NCBI GenBank assembly: GCA_026125215.1
Contig: JAHCLN010000016.1
Span: 1-37,047 of the forward strand
DNA length: 37,047 nt
Source: Opitutaceae bacterium
GTDB lineage: Bacteria; Verrucomicrobiota; Verrucomicrobiia; Opitutales; Opitutaceae
Direction of reading: 5' to 3'
A program made the translations under genes and the position numbers. Positions 7,566 to 37,033 of the stretch are shown one piece after another (position 1 is the first letter of the stretch; each line of letters begins with the position of its first letter). The notes below the pieces were generated by a model. The model worked only from the letters and a program-made list of their open reading frames with translations. It was not told the DNA's origin and searched no databases.

Positions 7566-10500
7566 CTAACGCTTCGACCAGCGGCGTTCCTGCTTGAGCT
7601 CGAGGGGCTTGGTTTCGAGCTGGACGCCGGCGACGGCGGGGTGGCTGCGCAGTTCCTGAAACACGGGGGCGGTGAGTTTCCAGGCGAGCGCCGTGCTCAC
7701 CTCGGCGACCGGGGCGACGCGGTCCTCGAAAAGGAAGCCGAATTCCACGCGGGTGTCGCCGTTTTGCCGGTCGATGGTCTGGCGCAGCAGCCGGATAAAG
7801 ACGGGGGTCTCCGGGTGTTCGGGCCGGAGGAGCCAGGTGACCTTCCGCACGATGCCGGTGATGAAATGGTCGAGCGGGTAGCACTCCTTGACGTTGATGC
7901 GTGCGCCGTCGTTGCCGGCGATGATGTTGCCCTGCACGAGCACGGGCGACTCCGGCAGGAGGTTCGCGGCATAGGCGGCGTAGGCGTCGGCGAACATGTT
8001 GAGGGCAACCGAGGACTGCTTGGTCGAGAGGGTGAAGGCGGCCCAGGGGCGGTTGTCCTTCTTCGAGAGTTTTTTGGTGATGTTGCCCGCGATGCCGCAG
8101 AGCCGGAATTCGACGCGGTCGGTCTGCTGCAGAAGGCTGTCCACCGTGTGGCTGTCCACGGCCTCGGCCAGCCCCGCGTAAACGTTCATCGGATGGCCGG
8201 AGACATAGAAGCCGAGCAGTTCCTTTTCAAACTGCAGGCGCTCGGCGGGGGGAAAATCGTCGGCGGATTTGGGATTTTCGATTTTCGAATTTCGGTTTTC
8301 CGCCGGCGCGGGCGCCTCGGCGAGCATGTCGAGGAAGCTGTGCTGGCCGGCGGCCTTGTCCCGGGCGGCGGCGGAGGCGGTGGCCAGCGCGCCGTCGATG
8401 CCGTCAAAGAGCTGCTTGCGGCTGCCGCCGCTGAAATCGAAGGCGCCGGTCTTCACGAGGTGCTCGAGCACGCGCTTGTTCAGGGCCCGGGGATCGCCGC
8501 GGCGCACGAAGTCGGCGAAGTCCGCGTAGGGGCCGTTTTTTTCGCGTTCCTCGATGATCTTCTGCGCCGCCTGCTCGCCGACGCCCTTGATGCCGGCGAG
8601 GCCGAAGCGGATCTTGCCGCCCACCGGGGTGAACATCTCGCGGGATTCGTTCACGTCGGGGCCGAGAACGGTGAGGCCCATGGACTCGCACTCGGCGATG
8701 AAGTGGGAGACCTTTTCCGAGTTGCCCAGCTCGGAGCTGAGCATGGCGGCCATGAACTGGACGGGATAGTTGGCCTTCAGGTAGCCGGTCTGGTAGCTGA
8801 GGACGGCGTAGGCGGCGGAGTGCGATTTGTTGAAACCGTAGCCGGCGAATTTGTTGAGAATGTCGAAGATCGAGTCGGCCGTCTTGGCGTCGATGTTGTT
8901 CACGCGCTTGGCGCCCTCGACGAACTTCGCGCGCTCCTTCGCCATGGCCTCGGCGTCCTTTTTGCCCATGGCGCGGCGGAGCATGTCGGCGCCGCCGAGC
9001 GTGTAGCCAGCGATGACCTTGGCCGCCTCCATCACCTGTTCCTGATAGACCATCACGCCGTAGGTCTCGCGGCAGATTTCCTCGAGAAGCGGGTGGGGGA
9101 ACTTGACGGTTTCGGGGTCGCGCTTGCCGCGGACGTAGTCGGGAATCCACTCCATCGGGCCGGGCCGGTAGAGCGCGATGAGCGCAACGATCTCGTCGAT
9201 GGAAGAGAGGCCGATCTGGCGGCAGAGGGCCTGCATGCCGCCGGATTCCAGCTGGAAGACGCCGGTGGTGCGGCCGGAGTTGAGCAGGGTGTAGGTCTTC
9301 GGGTCGTCGAAACCCACGGCCTCGATGTCGAACTTGGGATCGGCGGTGCGCCGGATGTTGTCCACCGCATCGGCAATCACGGTGAGTGTCTTCAGCCCGA
9401 GGAAGTCCATCTTCAGCAGGCCGAGCTTGCCGACGGCGTTCATGTCGAACTGCACGGTCACATCGCCTTCCTGCTCGGTCAGGGGGACGAACTCGTCGAG
9501 CGGCCGGTCGGTGATGATGATGCCGGCGGCGTGCTTGCCGGTGTTGCGCACCATGCCCTCGAGCACGAGCGCCTGGTCGAAGATTTTCTTGGCGACCGGG
9601 TTTTTGGCGACCTCGTCACGCAGCTCGGCGGATTTCTCCCGGGCGGACTCAAGCGTGATGTTGAGTTCGTCGGGGATCATCTTGGCGAGGCGGTCGGCGT
9701 CGGCGTAGGGGAGGTTGTGGACGCGGGAGACGTCGCGGATGACCATCTTGGCACCGAGGGTGCCGTAGGTGATGATGTTGGCCACGCAGTCGGCGCCGTA
9801 TTTCCGGCGCACGTAGTCGATGACCTCGCCACGGCGGCGCATGCAGAAATCGATGTCGAAGTCGGGCGGCGAGACGCGCTCGGGGTGGAGGAAGCGCTCG
9901 AAGAGCAGCTTGAAGCGCAGCGGATCGAGGTTGGTGATGCCGAGGACGTAGGCGACGAGGCAGCCGGCGCCCGAGCCGCGGCCGGGGCCGACGGGAATGC
10001 CGTGTTCGCGTGCCCAGTGGATGAAATCCCAGACGACGAGGAAGTAGTCGATGAAGCCGGTTTTGCCGATGATGCCGAGCTCGTAGTCGAGGCGTTCGGC
10101 GAGGGTCTGCGCGAGATCCGGGTCGCGCGCGGAACCGGGTTTGGCGTAGTCCACGCCGTAACGGTGCCGGAGGCCTTCGATGCAGAGCTGCTTCAGGTAA
10201 CCGGCGCGGTCGGTCTTCACCTCGGGCGGCAGCGGATACTTCGGGTAGCGCTCGCTGCCCTTGGGGAAGGGGATGGTGAGGTCGCACATGTCGGCGACGA
10301 GCTGCGTGTTGACGACGGACTCGGGCACCTCGGCGAAGAGTTTTGCCATCTCGGCGTGCGACTTGAGGTAGAACTGCGTGCCGGTGAACTTCATCCGGTT
10401 CTCCTCGTCGATCTTCGCGCCGGTCTGGATGCAGAGCATGGCGTCGTGCGGGCCGGCGTCCGCGGCATTGACGTAGTGGACGTCGTTGGTGGCGATGACC

Positions 10501-11276: not shown

Positions 11277-11474
11277 ATGCCCATCGAAATCAAAATCCGC
11301 AAAAACGAGCCCATCGACCGTGCGCTCCGCCGCATGAAGAAGAAGCTCGAGCGCGAGAACATCATCAAGGGTGTTCGCGCCAAGCGCTACTACGAGAAAC
11401 CGTGCGAAAAGCGCCGCCGCAAGGAGAAGGTTCAGGCCTTCACCCAGATGCTGCGCCGCCGCTACGCCGAGTAA
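11277..11474 (+). CDS. rpsU: 30S ribosomal protein bS21
   Basis: This is a 65-residue, very basic protein of the small ribosomal subunit that binds near the 3' end of 16S rRNA and helps initiation. The family pattern is clear: IEIKIRKNEPIDRALRRMKKK at the start (residues 3-23), then AKRYYEKPCEKRRRKE and a basic helical tail ending RRRYAE. The ATG at 11277 gives the standard N-terminus (MPIEIKIRKN); an upstream ATG at 11232 is in frame but adds foreign sequence. No Shine-Dalgarno site is visible before it (the upstream bases are pyrimidine-rich). A candidate promoter lies 36 bases upstream and a convincing intrinsic terminator 27 bases after the stop, so it is probably a single-gene transcript. 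Confidence 0.97.
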   Translation: MPIEIKIRKNEPIDRALRRMKKKLERENIIKGVRAKRYYEKPCEKRRRKEKVQAFTQMLRRRYAE

Positions 11475-19885: not shown

Positions 19886-21844
19886 ATGAAACAAACCCTG
19901 CCCCTGGATGCTGCTTGGAAACTCATGCCGGTGGAGCCCAACCTCGGGCTCACCGCCGGCTGCTCGGCCCTGCCGTTTGAGCAGCGGTGGATCGACGCGC
20001 AGGTGCCGGGCGACGTGCACCTCGACTGCCAGCGCGCCGGGCTGATCGGCGATCCGTTCTACGGGCTAAACCACGACCACATCCGCTGGATGGAGGAATT
20101 TGACTGGTGGTATCGCACCGAGATCACGCCTCCGACGCCCGGGCCCGGCCAGCGGCTGCACCTGCTCTTCGAGGGACTCGACTGCTTCGCCACCGTGTAT
20201 CTCAACGGCAAGGAAATCGGCCGAAACCAAAACATGTTTACGCCGCTGCGCGTGGATGTGACCGACCATGTCGTCCCCGGCGTTAACCGTCTCGAGGTCT
20301 GTCTCGGCGCGCCCGTCTATCCGCCCGACCGTCCCGCGCGCAGCCCCGGGGTGCGCGGCTACGGCAACGCCCTGCGGCTTCAGGTCCGCAAGGCCCAGTG
20401 CTGCTACGGGTGGAATATCGCCCCGCGCCTCGTCACCATCGGCATCTGGAAGCCCGTCTCGTGGCTCCTCGTCAACGCCGTCGAGATTGACGACGTGTCC
20501 GTGAGCACCGTTGCGCTCAACGCCGACGGCTCCGCCGAGGTCGAGGCGCTCGTCGAGTTGCGCTACAACCACGGCGCGCCCGATGCCGTCACCGTGGATC
20601 TCGCCGTCGCCGGCCAATCGCGCCAACTCGCGCTGCATTTCGACCAGGTCGGCGCCCGGCACGCCGTGCGTTTCACCGTGCCCGCCGCGAAGCTTTGGTG
20701 GCCGCACGACCACGGCGCGCAACCGCTCTACGACTGGAGCGCCACGCTCAGGCATGCCGGCCGCGAGCTTGACCGCCGCGCCGGTCGCTTTGGCATCCGC
20801 ACCATCGGCATCATCCAGGAGCCGGAGGCCGACGGCGGCATTTCCTTCGTCCTCACCGTCAACGGCAAAAAGATTTTCCTCAAGGGGATGAACTGGACGC
20901 CGGCCGACGCCATCTTCGCCCGGGTGGACGCCGCCCGCTACGACCGGCTCCTTGCCGCGGCGAAGGACACCAACATCAACGCCATGCGCGTGTGGGGCGG
21001 CGGTGTGTATGAGCAGGACCATTTCTACGCGCGGTGCGACGAGCTCGGCATCCTCATCACGCACGACTTCATGTTCGCCTGCGGCTGTTACCCGCAGGAC
21101 CAGCCTTTCCTCGACGAATGCCGCCGCGAGGCGGAATACCAGGTGCGCCGCCTGCGGCATTTCGCCTGTGTTGCCGTGTGGTTCGGCGACAACGAGAACG
21201 ATGCGCTCGCGCACATGAGTTTCGAGCAGCCGGAATACCGGCACAACCGGCTCAGCAAACAGGTGCTGCGCGATGCCGTGCACGCCCACGCCCCGCGCAC
21301 GCCCTATCTGCCCAGCTCGCCGTTCTCGCCCGTGCGCTTTGACCAAAACGCACCCGAGGAGGGCGACTGCCACATCTGGGGCCACGGGTTCTCTTACAAG
21401 AGCGATTTTTATGTGAAGCAAAAGCCGCGCATGGTCACCGAGATCGGCCACCTCAGTTTCCCCGACCGCCCGGTCATCGAGTCGTGGGTCCCGGCCGACA
21501 AGCGCTGGCCCGTGTGGAATCCCGAATACCTCACGCACGGCGCCGACTGCATCCGCCTCGACCGCGAGGCCCGCTACCGGCTCAACTGGGCGAGCATCAA
21601 GGAGCGCGGCTGGCCCGAGCCGAAGGACCTCGACGAGACCATCCGCCTCACGCAGCAGCTGCAGGGCGAGGCCTCGAAATTCTGGGTCGAGTTCTACGGC
21701 AACCAGCCGCAGTGCTGGGGCATTTTCCTCTGGAACCTCGCCGACAGCTGGCCGCAGATGTCCGACGCCTACATCGCCTATCCCTACGCCCCCAAAGCCA
21801 GCCTCGCCTACGTGAAGCAGGCCTACGCGGAGCTGAAACGGTGA
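19886..21844 (+). CDS. GH2-family beta-mannosidase-like glycoside hydrolase
   Basis: This 652-residue protein follows the GH2 plan: an N-terminal jelly-roll sugar-binding domain (WIDAQVPGDVHLDCQRAGLI, WWYRTEI, LHLLFEGLDCFATVYLNG), an immunoglobulin-like domain, and a TIM barrel from about residue 325 (LKGMNWTPADAIF, MRVWGGGVYEQDHFY). The acid/base glutamate is the one in WFGDNEND (near residue 432), and the likely nucleophile is the glutamate in MVTEIGHLSF (near residue 518). MNWTPAD and WGGGVYE are the mannosidase-like forms of these blocks. It is shorter than typical 800-plus residue mannosidases, lacking the C-terminal beta domains. No signal peptide is seen, so the substrate is probably an imported oligosaccharide. 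Exact specificity is inferred only. Confidence 0.87.
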   Translation: MKQTLPLDAAWKLMPVEPNLGLTAGCSALPFEQRWIDAQVPGDVHLDCQRAGLIGDPFYGLNHDHIRWMEEFDWWYRTEITPPTPGPGQRLHLLFEGLDCFATVYLNGKEIGRNQNMFTPLRVDVTDHVVPGVNRLEVCLGAPVYPPDRPARSPGVRGYGNALRLQVRKAQCCYGWNIAPRLVTIGIWKPVSWLLVNAVEIDDVSVSTVALNADGSAEVEALVELRYNHGAPDAVTVDLAVAGQSRQLALHFDQVGARHAVRFTVPAAKLWWPHDHGAQPLYDWSATLRHAGRELDRRAGRFGIRTIGIIQEPEADGGISFVLTVNGKKIFLKGMNWTPADAIFARVDAARYDRLLAAAKDTNINAMRVWGGGVYEQDHFYARCDELGILITHDFMFACGCYPQDQPFLDECRREAEYQVRRLRHFACVAVWFGDNENDALAHMSFEQPEYRHNRLSKQVLRDAVHAHAPRTPYLPSSPFSPVRFDQNAPEEGDCHIWGHGFSYKSDFYVKQKPRMVTEIGHLSFPDRPVIESWVPADKRWPVWNPEYLTHGADCIRLDREARYRLNWASIKERGWPEPKDLDETIRLTQQLQGEASKFWVEFYGNQPQCWGIFLWNLADSWPQMSDAYIAYPYAPKASLAYVKQAYAELKR

Positions 21845-21922
21845 CGCCGGGGTGGGGCATGCCTTCGCCGATGGCTGCCGGCCTGCGTTGAGGGCTTGCG
21901 GCCTTCTGTGCATATCCTACTG

Positions 21923-22663
21923 ATGAGCCCTATGCCGCAATCGAGTCAGTTTCCTTGGAGTGAGACAGAGTTTGCCCGACGGCTTAGACTGGCGGTCAAA
22001 GAATACTGGCTAGGACGAGGAGGGCAATATTCACAACAAGCGAGCCGTGGCACCAAGGACGCCGGCAAACGCGGTGAGGTCACGGGCGGCCAACATCTCA
22101 ACCGGTTTTTGGGCTTGCTGACCGGGGTTGCGGAAGCGGCGGGTTTCAACCGCGACGAAATCAAGCTGAGGCAGGGTATTGAGTTGCCGGGGTATTTTCG
22201 CCCGCAGAAGCGCTGGGATATGGTCGTGGTGCGCGGCTCCCGGTTGTGCGCCGCGGTCGAGTTAAAATCGCAGGTCGGCAGCTTCGGAAACAACTTCAAC
22301 AATCGCAGCGAAGAAGCGATCGGCAACTCCACCGATTTTTGGACGGCCTTTCGCGAAGGAGGCATGGGCAAGGAGACGCCTTGGCTGGGTTACTTTTTTC
22401 TGCTGGAGCAGGCTGACAAATCATCCCAGCCGATTGGTCTGAAGCCGGGCCTCTTTCCGCCTTTTCCGGTTTTTGAAGGGACCTCGTATGCGCGCCGTTA
22501 CGAAATTCTCTGCGAGCGTTTGGTGCTGGAGCGGAAATACACCCGCACCGCCTTGCTGCTTTCGCCCCGAGGCGCATCCGGGCGATACATCGAGCCGAAC
22601 CCGGCGCTGGATTTTTACGGTTTTGCCAAGTCTCTGCACGCCCATCTGGGCGGGTGCCGTTGA
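21923..22663 (+). CDS. PaeR7I/XhoI-type type II restriction endonuclease
   Basis: This 246-residue protein matches the PaeR7I family of endonucleases, whose known members cut CTCGAG. The PD-(D/E)xK active site is readable as KRWDMVVV (Asp99) and AAVELKSQ (Glu113, Lys115). The following QVGSFGNNFNNRSEEAIGNS is a strong family block (residues 117-136). The ATG at 21923 was chosen; a TTG at 21896 is in frame but lies among promoter-like sequence. The cognate methyltransferase starts eleven bases after its stop, with the endonuclease first. GC content and codon choice are visibly lower than in flanking genes, indicating transfer. The target sequence is inferred from family membership, not shown here. 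Confidence 0.9.
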   Translation: MSPMPQSSQFPWSETEFARRLRLAVKEYWLGRGGQYSQQASRGTKDAGKRGEVTGGQHLNRFLGLLTGVAEAAGFNRDEIKLRQGIELPGYFRPQKRWDMVVVRGSRLCAAVELKSQVGSFGNNFNNRSEEAIGNSTDFWTAFREGGMGKETPWLGYFFLLEQADKSSQPIGLKPGLFPPFPVFEGTSYARRYEILCERLVLERKYTRTALLLSPRGASGRYIEPNPALDFYGFAKSLHAHLGGCR

Positions 22664-22668
22664 GGAGG
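22662..22668 (+). promoter_or_regulatory. strong Shine-Dalgarno site of the methyltransferase gene
   Basis: GAGGAGG lies six bases before the ATG at 22675 and overlaps the endonuclease stop. It decides the start over the in-frame GTG at 22654. Most other genes in this window have no such site. Confidence 0.8.
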
Positions 22669-22674
22669 ACGAAC

Positions 22675-24333
22675 ATGGAACTCCAGTTGTTCGAAAACTC
22701 CTGGTTGGACGTCTGGGAAGGACGGGAACCACACGAACCGGTGGGAGCGGTGTTTACCAAGCCTGCCATCATCGGCCTCATCCTCGATTTGGCCGGCTAT
22801 GGGCCAGCCCGGGGGCGGTTATCGGGTTATCGCTTGTTGGAGCCGAGTTGTGGCGATGGCGCTTTCATCATCGAAGCTATCAAGCGATTGCTCGTTTCCG
22901 AACGGGAGCATGCTGGGCAAATCGATTGGACCGGCGAGGCTTTGGCCGACGCCATTACCGCTTGTGATCTTAACAGCGGGTTTATCGCTTTGGCGCGAGA
23001 GGCTGCGATCCGCTTGTTGGGCGACGAAGGTTGTCCCCGGCTCCGGGCAGAAGAGCTGGCCGTCCGCTGGATCCGGCACGAAGATTTTTTGCTCACCAAT
23101 CGGGCGGAGCGTTTTGATTTTGTCGTCGGCAATCCTCCTTACGTGCGGATTGAGGATCTGCCCGCCGGGGTGCTGCGTCGTTATCGTGAACTCTATCAGA
23201 CCTGCACCGACCGGGCTGACTTGTATGTGGCCTTCTTCGAGAAGGGGCTGCGACTGCTAGGCCCCGAAGGGTGTCTTGCCTATATTTGTGCAAACCGTTT
23301 TGCGAAAAATCTCTATGGCCGTGAACTCCGGCAGTTGATCGCACGGGAATATCATGTGCGTTATTATCTGAACCTTGAGCACACGCAGCCGTTTGAATCC
23401 GAGGTATCGGCATATCCGTGCATCTCCGTGATTGATCGTGAGCGCGGCAAGCACACTTGTGCGGCTGCCTTGGAGGACGTGGAACCGGCTACGCTCGACC
23501 GCCTGCGTCCGACGGGAATTGCGGCTCGCAGGGCAAAACTATGGGCGAGCTTCCCTTCGTGGTATCAGGACGGAGCGCCGTGGATTGCCACGGAAAGGAA
23601 ACGTTATGATCGGCTGCTCGACTTGGCGGCTCGATTCCCGCTGCTGGAAGAGTCGGCGTCCGGCACGCAGGTGGGGATAGGCGTCGCAACCGGGGCTGAT
23701 GACATTTATATTCGTCACGATATTGACCCGGCCATTGAAGCGACATGCCAGTTGCCTTTGGTGATGGCCGGAGACATCGGTCCTGCCGGTTTGAAGTGGT
23801 CGGGACACCACCTCATCAACCCCTTTGCCGATGCGGATGATGGCAGTCTGCGGGACTTGGCAGATTACCCGGGACTTGCGGCTTATTTTGACCGGCACCG
23901 TGTGGCTTTGATGGGACGTCATGTCGCCCGGAAGCGCAGCGAAAACTGGTATCGCACGATCGACCGTGTGACCCTTGCGCTCACCCGAACGCCCAAACTG
24001 GTCATCCCAGACATCCAATCGGGTGGAGTCGTTGGCTATGACCCGGGGCAATATTACCCTCATCACAATGTTTACTGGATAACTTCGAAAGGCTGGGACC
24101 TACGTGCTTTGCAGGCGCTGTTGAGGAGTTCCATTGTCTTGGAGCAGGTCAGGGCGCATTCCGTTCATATGCGAGGCGGCTCACTGCGGTATCAAGCGCA
24201 GGTGCTTCGTAAGCTCCGATTGCCGGCTTTCGACAGTTTGCCGGCGGCATTGATCGGCCGATTGGCAGCCGTCGCAGGGAATGACGATCAAAAGGTTATA
24301 GACCTGTATGCAGAGGAAGCTTTCGCCGTATAG
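22675..24333 (+). CDS. N6-adenine DNA methyltransferase of a PaeR7I-type system
   Basis: This 552-residue enzyme would methylate adenine in the recognition site and protect host DNA from the preceding endonuclease. The SAM-binding motif I is LLEPSCGDGAF (residues 54-64) and the catalytic motif IV is VVGNPPYVR (Asn-Pro-Pro-Tyr at 153-156), the order of gamma-class N6A methyltransferases. The C-terminal half, with QVGIGVATGADDIYI and HHNVYWITSK, is the target-recognition part. Base use is AT-richer than neighbours: bases 23281-23340 contain 26 G or C out of 60. The two genes form a compact island between the GH2 gene and the nucleoside-hydrolase-like gene, with no integrase or repeat at its ends that I can see. 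Confidence 0.92.
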   Translation: MELQLFENSWLDVWEGREPHEPVGAVFTKPAIIGLILDLAGYGPARGRLSGYRLLEPSCGDGAFIIEAIKRLLVSEREHAGQIDWTGEALADAITACDLNSGFIALAREAAIRLLGDEGCPRLRAEELAVRWIRHEDFLLTNRAERFDFVVGNPPYVRIEDLPAGVLRRYRELYQTCTDRADLYVAFFEKGLRLLGPEGCLAYICANRFAKNLYGRELRQLIAREYHVRYYLNLEHTQPFESEVSAYPCISVIDRERGKHTCAAALEDVEPATLDRLRPTGIAARRAKLWASFPSWYQDGAPWIATERKRYDRLLDLAARFPLLEESASGTQVGIGVATGADDIYIRHDIDPAIEATCQLPLVMAGDIGPAGLKWSGHHLINPFADADDGSLRDLADYPGLAAYFDRHRVALMGRHVARKRSENWYRTIDRVTLALTRTPKLVIPDIQSGGVVGYDPGQYYPHHNVYWITSKGWDLRALQALLRSSIVLEQVRAHSVHMRGGSLRYQAQVLRKLRLPAFDSLPAALIGRLAAVAGNDDQKVIDLYAEEAFAV

Positions 24334-24348
24334 TTTCGGTCCGGTAAT

Positions 24349-24363
24349 GCTGCAACCTGCAGC
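24349..24363. other. small perfect inverted repeat after the methyltransferase gene
   Basis: GCTGCA and TGCAGC flank ACC, 15 bases after the methyltransferase stop. It may be a weak terminator of the restriction-modification message; no T-run follows. Confidence 0.25.
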
Positions 24364-24378
24364 CGCCTGAAGTTTCCC

Positions 24379-25407
24379 ATGAGCATACCCTTTCTGCACC
24401 AGACCGATCTCTTCCACCCCCATGCGGATCCCGACGACCACTGGGATCTGGCCTGCGTGTATGCCCTCGCGCGGGCCGGCGACTACGACCTGTGCGGCGT
24501 GCTGATTGATTACCCGCCGCCGGCGCTGGATGTGACGCCCGACGTGATGGCCGTGGCGCAGTTGAACCATATCACCGGGCTGGCCGTGCCGGGCGCAGTG
24601 GGTTCCGCCGTGCCGGTGCGCACACGCGGCGAAAAGGCGGACGATCAGCCGGCCGCGGAGCGGCACGGGGTGGAGTTTTTGCTGAGTATCCTGCGGGAGA
24701 GCCCTGCGCCGGTGGTGATCACGATCGTCGGCTCGTGCCGCGACGTGGCGCTGGCGGGTGCGCAGGCCCCGGAGTTGTTCCGGGAAAAATGCCGCGCGGT
24801 CTATCTCAATGCCGGCTCCGGCACGCGCCGGCCGGAGCTGCTCGGCGAGCTGGAATACAACGTAAACGTCAACCCGGCCGCCTACGGGATGATCTTCAAC
24901 CTGCCGTGCCCGGTTTACTGGCTGCCGTGCTTCGAGCTGACGCCGCCGACGTGGACGGTCGAGGAGTGGGGGACATTCTACCGTTTCACGCAGGGCGAGA
25001 TTTTGCCGCACCTGAGCCCGCGCATGCAGGCCTATTTTCTCTACATGCTCGGCCGCTCGCCGAGCCCGGACTGGCTGAAGGTCCTGCGCGAACCGGTGGA
25101 CGCCGCGGCGCTGGCTCACTTCGGCACGATGCCGCGCAACATGTGGTGCACGGGCGGATTTTTCCATGCGGCCGGCCGCACGGTAACGGCGGACGGCGAT
25201 ATCGTGCCGTTGGCAGAGGCGGGAGAGCGGGCGGTCTTCGGTTTCGAGCCCATCCGCGTCACCTGTGGCGACGACGGAGTGGTGCGCTGGGAACCGGCCC
25301 CCGCGCCGGGCGACCCGGTGCGTTTCATCTTCCGGGTGCGCGACCGGGCGAACTACGCCGCGGCGATGACCCGCGCCATGCGGACCCTGCTGGCGACGCT
25401 GCCGTGA
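24379..25407 (+). CDS. nucleoside hydrolase-like protein
   Basis: This 342-residue protein resembles inosine/uridine-preferring nucleoside hydrolases, calcium-dependent enzymes that split the N-glycosidic bond of ribonucleosides. The N-terminal block is HADPDDHWDLACVYALA, a variant of the usual DTDPGxDDAxAL metal motif in which the first Asp is replaced by His. A central VVITIVGSCRDVALA and ELEYNVNVNPAAYGMIF correspond to the family's core and its second metal/substrate region. Because the metal motif is altered, activity on nucleosides is uncertain. It is cytoplasmic by sequence. It heads a run of three same-strand genes, with the dihydroxyacetone kinase gene 86 bases downstream. The start ATG 24379 follows pyrimidine-rich DNA without a Shine-Dalgarno site. 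Confidence 0.78.
   Translation: MSIPFLHQTDLFHPHADPDDHWDLACVYALARAGDYDLCGVLIDYPPPALDVTPDVMAVAQLNHITGLAVPGAVGSAVPVRTRGEKADDQPAAERHGVEFLLSILRESPAPVVITIVGSCRDVALAGAQAPELFREKCRAVYLNAGSGTRRPELLGELEYNVNVNPAAYGMIFNLPCPVYWLPCFELTPPTWTVEEWGTFYRFTQGEILPHLSPRMQAYFLYMLGRSPSPDWLKVLREPVDAAALAHFGTMPRNMWCTGGFFHAAGRTVTADGDIVPLAEAGERAVFGFEPIRVTCGDDGVVRWEPAPAPGDPVRFIFRVRDRANYAAAMTRAMRTLLATLP

Positions 25408-36957: not shown

Positions 36958-37033
<76 letters not shown>

What the first reader, a model, noticed from the sequence alone, without database searches (positions are those of the whole stretch)
21923..24333. Two-gene PaeR7I/XhoI-type restriction-modification island
Endonuclease and methyltransferase motifs are complete, while base composition and codon choice differ from neighbours. 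They sit as an insert between metabolic genes with no visible integrase. CTCGAG sites, the expected target, are present in the window (for example 7599-7604 and 11346-11351), so host DNA would need protection.
Basis: partly seen in the sequence, partly recalled or inferred. Interest (0 to 1): 0.55.

Follow-up and report, generated by a model that had tools for sequence, protein, structure and literature searches.

The report
Endonuclease-first XhoI-family restriction operon
This is an intact two-gene bacterial DNA-cutting and DNA-protecting defence unit related to PaeR7I/XhoI, but its genes run in the reverse order and the host genome's missing sites suggest it may cut GTCGAC rather than the expected CTCGAG.

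Summary
The island is real. Window 21923-22663 encodes a complete XhoI-family endonuclease, 22675-24333 an N6-adenine methylase, both of foreign composition. The pair sits at the same locus in congener UBA2377; congener G004 has the flanking genes side by side without it. Neighbour-like dS and low dN/dS (R 0.055, M 0.12) show both genes were kept since the split from UBA2377.

It is no PaeR7I/XhoI copy: about 41% identical to PaeR7I and in an R-then-M group (8 of 31 loci with both genes; the other 23 are M-then-R) that forms one side of a branch in the M tree (100/100).

CTCGAG as target is unproven. It is only mildly low in the two carriers (Kr 0.81, 0.73; published cut-off 0.78), while GTCGAC, the SalI site, is nearly absent (0.17, 0.16) against 0.68, 0.83 and 1.03 in three congeners. 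This M is the only methylase found in both carriers but not genus-wide. Against: GTAC is equally scarce with no system found; a genome with a 65%-identical pair avoids neither site; 5 of 43 genomes outside the clade also lack GTCGAC. An ordinary system with one testable twist.

The parts
21923..22663 (+). R gene: XhoI-family (PF04555) Type II restriction endonuclease, 246 aa; predicted catalytic D99 (22217-22219), E113 (22259-22261), K115 (22265-22267)
   Evidence: AlphaFold2 model mean pLDDT 86.9 whose highest VIA-align matches are mostly restriction enzymes (PspGI Z 10.4, BbvCI, BstEII, SgrAI, AgeI)
22675..24333 (+). M gene: Eco57I-type N6-adenine DNA methyltransferase, 552 aa; motif I at 22837-22860, NPPY at 23131-23142
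   Evidence: PDB sequence matches to M.BseCI (E=3.3e-18) and M.TaqI
22661..22669 (+). Shine-Dalgarno sequence of M (TGAGGAGGA), overlapping the stop codon of R; predicted pairing -12.0 kcal/mol, 5 nt before ATG 22675
   Evidence: same in L010
21886..21927 (+). 42 nt (leader, start codon and two more bases of R) identical in UBA2377 although dS of the gene is about 0.27; holds a weak promoter-like pair TTGAGG (21888-21893), 19 nt, TATCCT (21913-21918); no Shine-Dalgarno for R
   Evidence: the promoter reading is by eye and the consensus scan found none
19886..21844 (+). Left flank: glycoside hydrolase family 2 protein, native composition
24349..24370 (+). Right flank: leftover 3' end (about 20 coding bases with the stop) of a sugar-isomerase-like gene (AP_endonuc_2) that is intact in UBA2377 (L010 8588-9580) and otherwise missing here
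24379..25407 (+). Right flank: nucleoside-hydrolase-like protein, native composition

Best explanation
A working orthodox Type II restriction-modification operon of the XhoI/PaeR7I superfamily, in a branch whose endonuclease gene comes first. One message probably carries both genes; the endonuclease starts without a Shine-Dalgarno sequence while the methylase has a near-perfect one, so protection should outpace cutting (inferred). The methylase puts N6-methyladenine on a TCGA-centred six-base palindrome and the endonuclease cuts unmethylated copies in invading DNA. The target in this lineage is more likely GTCGAC than CTCGAG. The pair entered between a glycosidase and a nucleoside-hydrolase gene before the split from UBA2377 and has been maintained since. 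Shown here: genes, families, intact motifs, insertion against an empty site, purifying selection, gene order, site depletion. Inferred: activity, methylated base, target, expression logic. R-M function whatever the target: about 0.92; the number below is for GTCGAC.
For: R-M: families and motifs. Kept by selection: dN/dS R 0.055, M 0.122; dS 0.267 and 0.329 against 0.305 and 0.477 for the two flanking genes. Insertion: congener G004 has upstream synteny and the glycosidase and nucleoside-hydrolase genes adjacent without the pair. Own branch and order: 8 of 31 loci R->M, one side of a branch in the M tree (100/100) and in the R tree (89/73); with ten viral-contig rows added, 9 of 41, still one side of a branch (95, quick tree). 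Target: GTCGAC is the most depleted of 64 palindromes in samples of both carriers (Markov 10/120 and 14/159) and, among 6-mers with at least 15 expected, the only one with O/E under 0.45 in both. Karlin Kr is 0.17 and 0.16 against 0.68 (G002), 0.83 (G001) and 1.03 (G004), while CTCGAG is 0.81 and 0.73 (cut-off 0.78 from PMC4687349, passages). Whole-genome GTCGAC counts: 187 and 162 against 314, 828 and 2170 in G002, G001 and G004. Among PF07669, PF01555 and PF00145 matches in the two carriers the only shared methylase (blastp E<1e-15), apart from a gene present in all five genus genomes, is this M. Of the other systems, those scanned look like EcoRII, DpnI with a CcrM-like methylase, a TaqI_C/PglX-like methylase and Type I (own genome), and MvaI/BcnI and MmeI types (UBA2377); none is expected from its family name to read GTCGAC. 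PMC4687349 reports avoidance in all 45 cases of chromosomal systems found in most strains of a species (passage), the nearest published analogue of a long-resident system.
Against: GTAC is even rarer in both carriers (Kr 0.02) and rare in G002 and G001 (0.15, 0.28), with no system found to explain it, so depletion can have causes not seen here. GTCGAC is also the lowest-ranked palindrome by Markov z in G002 and G004, though mildly (0.50, 0.69), and G002's Kr of 0.68 is itself under the cut-off. CTCGAG in UBA2377 (0.73) is just under the cut-off too. The genome with the nearest outside homologue (65% identical, L011/G425) avoids neither site (Kr 0.89 GTCGAC, 0.82 CTCGAG). Among the other clade members G243, G376, G324 and G155 have GTCGAC:CTCGAG ratios of 0.89-1.08, and G275 is short of CTCGAG (Kr 0.13, only 7 expected) as well as GTCGAC (0.51). 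In 5 of 43 counted genomes outside the clade (G005, G128, G167, G297, G308) GTCGAC is under 0.4 of its reversed control, against 3 of 7 in the clade (G000, G003, G275). As a group the clade does not differ from non-carriers in GTCGAC:CTCGAG ratio (p=0.44, 7 v 23). N6_Mtase and D12 families were not searched as such, G000 C213 and C222 methylases were not identified further, and both genomes are 91-94% complete drafts. No SalI sequence was compared.
Confidence: 0.45

Rival explanations
1. The same R-M system with the family's usual target CTCGAG; the GTCGAC shortage is the scar of another, lost or unseen system.
For: Family PF04555 is named for XhoI; PaeR7I cuts CTCGAG and methylates its fifth base to m6A (PMC3031569, passage). 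CTCGAG is somewhat low in both carriers (Kr 0.81, 0.73; Markov 0.52, 0.43) against Kr 1.10 and 0.91 in the two congeners without the family. Scars of lost systems are common (PMC4687349, passage), and GTAC shows a depletion with no system found.
Against: In the own genome CTCGAG stays above the published avoidance cut-off although the system is long resident; G002, which has a PaeR7I-like system, has the same CTCGAG value (0.80). GTCGAC avoidance is far stronger in the two carriers and no other methylase specific to them was found.
Confidence: 0.35
2. A TCGA-core enzyme with a relaxed or different outer base pair (for example both CTCGAG and GTCGAC, or ATCGAT), so that both shortages come from one system.
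For: CTCGAG is the second most depleted palindrome after GTCGAC in both carriers by Markov z; M.BseCI and M.TaqI, among its nearest solved relatives, also read TCGA-core sites (recalled).
Against: The two shortages differ about fivefold (Kr 0.17 against 0.81) and ATCGAT is not depleted by Kr (0.99, 0.93). CTCGAG is also second by z in G002 and G425.
Confidence: 0.12
3. No longer restricting: the endonuclease is silent and the methylase acts alone in regulation or as a relic.
For: No expression data; no consensus promoter; three XhoI-family genes in the phylum carry an internal stop (G208, G350, G254).
Against: R is intact, has all columns invariant in the 13-member alignment and is under stronger constraint than M (dN/dS 0.055 against 0.122).
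Confidence: 0.08

Closest known systems
PaeR7I (paeR7IM/paeR7IR, copy on plasmid pRSB105, DQ839391)
   Same: Both proteins homologous over nearly their full length (R 41%, M 42%); same D, E, K positions; two-gene Type II system
   Different: PaeR7I is M then R, next to a gene annotated as invertase, on a plasmid; here R then M, in a chromosome-like contig of metabolic genes, on the other side of the M tree; target possibly different
XhoI (family PF04555)
   Same: R matches the family model over 183 of 191 positions
   Different: Scores 211 bits against 285-359 for eight PaeR7I-like loci of the phylum (L003, L004, L046, L047, L049, L054-L056); more divergent M->R members score 69-202. XhoI itself was not compared
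SalI of Streptomyces albus G
   Same: GTCGAC, recalled as its site, is the hexamer missing from both carrier genomes; SalI is also recalled to have R before M (not verified in any call)
   Different: SalI endonuclease is recalled as about 315 aa against 246 here; no SalI sequence was compared. The passages seen (PMC3937824) give only that the system exists and is broken by IS112 in strain J1074
EcoRI and Eco29kI
   Same: REase gene precedes MTase gene, with a bicistronic message (PMC12707154, passage)
   Different: Those have a separate MTase promoter and reverse promoters (same passage); no consensus promoter was found here, and they belong to other enzyme families (recalled)

Membership tests
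XhoI endonuclease family (PF04555) | Match over the curated cut-off along the domain | tested here: met
   210.7 bits against cut-off 25, positions 2-184 of 191
XhoI endonuclease family (PF04555) | Conserved D...E-x-K and NNxNNR-x-EE block | tested here: met
PaeR7I-type R-M system | Both genes homologous to PaeR7I M and R and adjacent | tested here: met
PaeR7I-type R-M system | M gene upstream of R gene, as in PaeR7I | tested here: not met
   R->M
PaeR7I-type R-M system | Target CTCGAG | tested here: inconclusive
   host Kr 0.81 in the own genome, 0.73 in the sister; no methylation data
Orthodox Type II (IIP) R-M system | Separate R and M genes, amino-MTase motifs, PD-(D/E)XK-like nuclease | tested here: met
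   fold match is supportive only
Orthodox Type II (IIP) R-M system | Cleavage and methylation activity | not testable with these tools
   needs experiment
SalI isospecific system (GTCGAC) | Target GTCGAC | tested here: inconclusive
   strong host depletion in both carriers, but contrary cases
SalI isospecific system (GTCGAC) | Sequence kinship with SalI R and M | not tested
   no SalI sequence was reached
Mobile element cargo | Integrase, transposase or repeats at the ends | tested here: not met
   none among five annotated neighbours; no direct repeat of 7 or more bases shared by the 95 and 70 bases compared at the two junctions

The most novel reading that the evidence does not exclude
Two branches of the XhoI/PaeR7I superfamily have opposite operon order and, in this lineage at least, differ in the outer base pair they read: GTCGAC here, CTCGAG in PaeR7I. 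That would be a natural XhoI/SalI specificity switch in a family with no solved endonuclease structure found.
Probability: 0.4. Interest if true: 0.5.

Novelty: new variant of a known kind. Interest (0 to 1): 0.3.

Why it matters
If the target is GTCGAC, two related enzyme sets that differ in one outer base pair (PaeR7I at CTCGAG, this one at GTCGAC) would make it possible to map how XhoI-family enzymes and their methylases choose that base, for a family in which no endonuclease structure was found in the PDB by sequence. It also warns against naming a restriction target from the family name alone: host site use is a cheap check and here disagrees. The reversed gene order raises the plain question of how a newly arrived operon avoids cutting its host. 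Otherwise it is an ordinary defence island.

Tried and rejected
Very recent acquisition: rejected, since the pair is shared with UBA2377 at the same place with neighbour-like dS. Exact ends of the insertion: not found; G004's intergenic DNA does not align usefully, and no target duplication was seen. A complication: G004 has a second, closer glycosidase copy (83% against 73%) on another contig without the nucleoside hydrolase; the C1 copy was taken as syntenic because of the matching upstream and downstream genes. The isomerase gene in UBA2377 as part of the island: unlikely, as its composition is native (GC 0.70, GC3 0.85); more simply a neighbour deleted in the window's lineage. Consensus promoters or terminators: none above shuffles. 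CTCGAG avoidance as a family-wide test: the M->R group has fewer CTCGAG per Mb than non-carriers (median 266 against 437, p=0.0018, 13 v 23), but the non-carriers are all of one family, so this may be taxonomy; G310, whose R is 92% identical to PaeR7I, shows little shortage (1581 CTCGAG against 1752 for the reversed control). Markov expectations make both shortages look larger than Karlin's formula does, so Kr is preferred. Strong-M, no-R Shine-Dalgarno as a rule of the clade: it holds in the window and L010 and mildly in L011, but L061 has a strong one for R, L063 shows none or a weak one at its candidate M starts, and M starts of L058-L061 were not resolved by the script. Phage records: no match to R. 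Foldseek alone gave no match at E<=0.001; the VIA-align second look gave the nuclease matches, best Z 10.4, where middling Z is common. Literature: listings only, apart from passages of PMC3031569, PMC3937824, PMC4687349 and PMC12707154; the titles and abstract openings listed showed nothing on this locus or on R-first XhoI-family systems, which does not prove that none is in print. Dropped rows: the R tree left out three partial rows (L009, L057, L064); 7 of 38 loci had no M homologue in the piece held (L048, L050-L053, L057, L064) and are not in the order count; the census holds 10 of 110 plasmid records with an R match; of 14 viral-contig loci, 3 had no M match and L243, much like L242, was left out of the tree.

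Full report
What is there. Two + strand genes fill window 21923-24333. The first is a 246-aa XhoI-family endonuclease (PF04555, E=2.3e-62), the second a 552-aa Eco57I-type N6-adenine methylase (PADLOC Type II MTase E=8.8e-163; related to solved M.BseCI and M.TaqI). Catalytic residues are complete. An AlphaFold2 model of R (pLDDT 86.9) has mostly restriction enzymes among its highest matches (PspGI, Z 10.4, 176 residues at 3.4 A). The methylase ATG at 22675 follows a strong Shine-Dalgarno that overlaps the R stop codon; R itself has none.

Where it came from. GC and codon use differ sharply from five neighbouring genes (GC3 0.62-0.68 against 0.81-0.90). In UBA2377 the same pair lies at the same place (R 97%, M 92%), followed by an isomerase-like gene of which only about the last 20 coding bases remain in the window. 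In congener G004, with matching genes upstream, the glycosidase and nucleoside-hydrolase genes are adjacent, 195 bases apart, with no R-M genes. G019, another genus, also has the upstream genes and glycosidase but no such pair there and no PF04555 match. A 65%-identical pair in another Verrucomicrobia genome sits elsewhere, between an rsgA-like and a pseudopilin-like gene (gene names by eye). So the pair moves between genomes, but here it was in place before the split from UBA2377: dS of R and M (0.27, 0.33) matches the left flank (0.31; the right flank is 0.48), and dN/dS of 0.055 and 0.122 shows that both proteins were kept.

What kind it is. Of 38 XhoI-family loci collected from the window, relatives, phylum and 10 plasmid records, 31 have a recognisable M gene in the piece held: 8 are R->M, 23 are M->R, including PaeR7I itself. 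The R->M set is one side of a branch in the M tree (100/100) and, less firmly, in the R tree (89/73); adding ten viral-contig M rows keeps it so, with one R->M member on a long branch. R-first order as such is known from EcoRI and Eco29kI (PMC12707154, passage).

What it cuts. The 12 CTCGAG sites in the window are what chance gives. In samples of 286 and 383 kb from the two carriers, GTCGAC is the most depleted of 64 palindromes (10/120 and 14/159); by Karlin's measure it is 0.17 and 0.16, against 0.68 in G002 (which has a PaeR7I-like system instead), 1.03 in G004 and 0.83 in G001. CTCGAG is 0.81 and 0.73 in the carriers against 0.80, 1.10 and 0.91. The published cut-off is 0.78; avoidance was seen there in about half of orthodox Type II cases and in all 45 cases of chromosomal systems present in most strains of a species (PMC4687349, passages). 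Three methylase families were searched in both carriers; apart from a gene present in all five genus genomes, only this M is shared, and those of the other systems that were scanned look like EcoRII, DpnI with a CcrM-like methylase, a TaqI_C/PglX-like methylase, Type I, MvaI/BcnI and MmeI types. I therefore put GTCGAC ahead of CTCGAG, but not far ahead.

What speaks against that. GTAC is nearly absent too (0.02 in both) and nothing found explains it. GTCGAC is mildly low in G002 and G004 as well by the Markov measure. G425, with the nearest outside homologue, avoids neither site. Four other members of the clade are not short of GTCGAC relative to CTCGAG, and G275 is short of both. In 5 of 43 genomes outside the clade GTCGAC is under 0.4 of its reversed control, against 3 of 7 inside. 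Group-wise the clade does not stand out (p=0.44). Draft genomes and unsearched methylase families leave room for an unseen system.

Verdict. An ordinary, intact and selected Type II R-M island of a known superfamily, in an R-first branch, whose likely target deserves an assay before it is named.

Noticed in passing
window 24334-24378; L010 8408-9589: A sugar-isomerase-like gene (PF01261) between M and the nucleoside hydrolase in UBA2377 is missing in the window's genome at this place, leaving about its last 20 coding bases next to the R-M pair.
   Followed up: partly
G000 and G003 genome samples: GTAC is almost absent (7 of 299 and 9 of 404 expected by Karlin's formula) in both carriers and scarce in G002 and G001, with no matching restriction system found.
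   Followed up: partly
L179 (G000:C197), L180 (G005:C9): A CcrM-like methylase gene sits beside a DpnI-family (methyl-directed) endonuclease gene in the own genome; both have 73-75% identical counterparts side by side in another genus. An odd pairing, since DpnI cuts methylated DNA.
   Followed up: partly
L048, L050, L051, L052, L053: Five XhoI-family endonuclease genes in the phylum form their own group (100/100) and have no PaeR7I-type methylase match in the pieces held, at most 1.5 kb on either side; their partner is unknown.
   Followed up: no
L004/L044 (G002:C287): Another congener carries a separate acquisition, a PaeR7I-like M->R system at a different place.
   Followed up: partly
L239 (viral contig IMGVR_UViG_2799112978_000001), 3001-5161: A contig of the viral collection carries an R->M XhoI-family pair that joins the window's group on a long branch.
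   Followed up: partly
G208:C54, G350:C9, G254:C213: XhoI-family genes with an internal stop, perhaps decaying.
   Followed up: no
window 36958-37033: tRNA-Gly(gcc) at the end of the contig.
   Followed up: no
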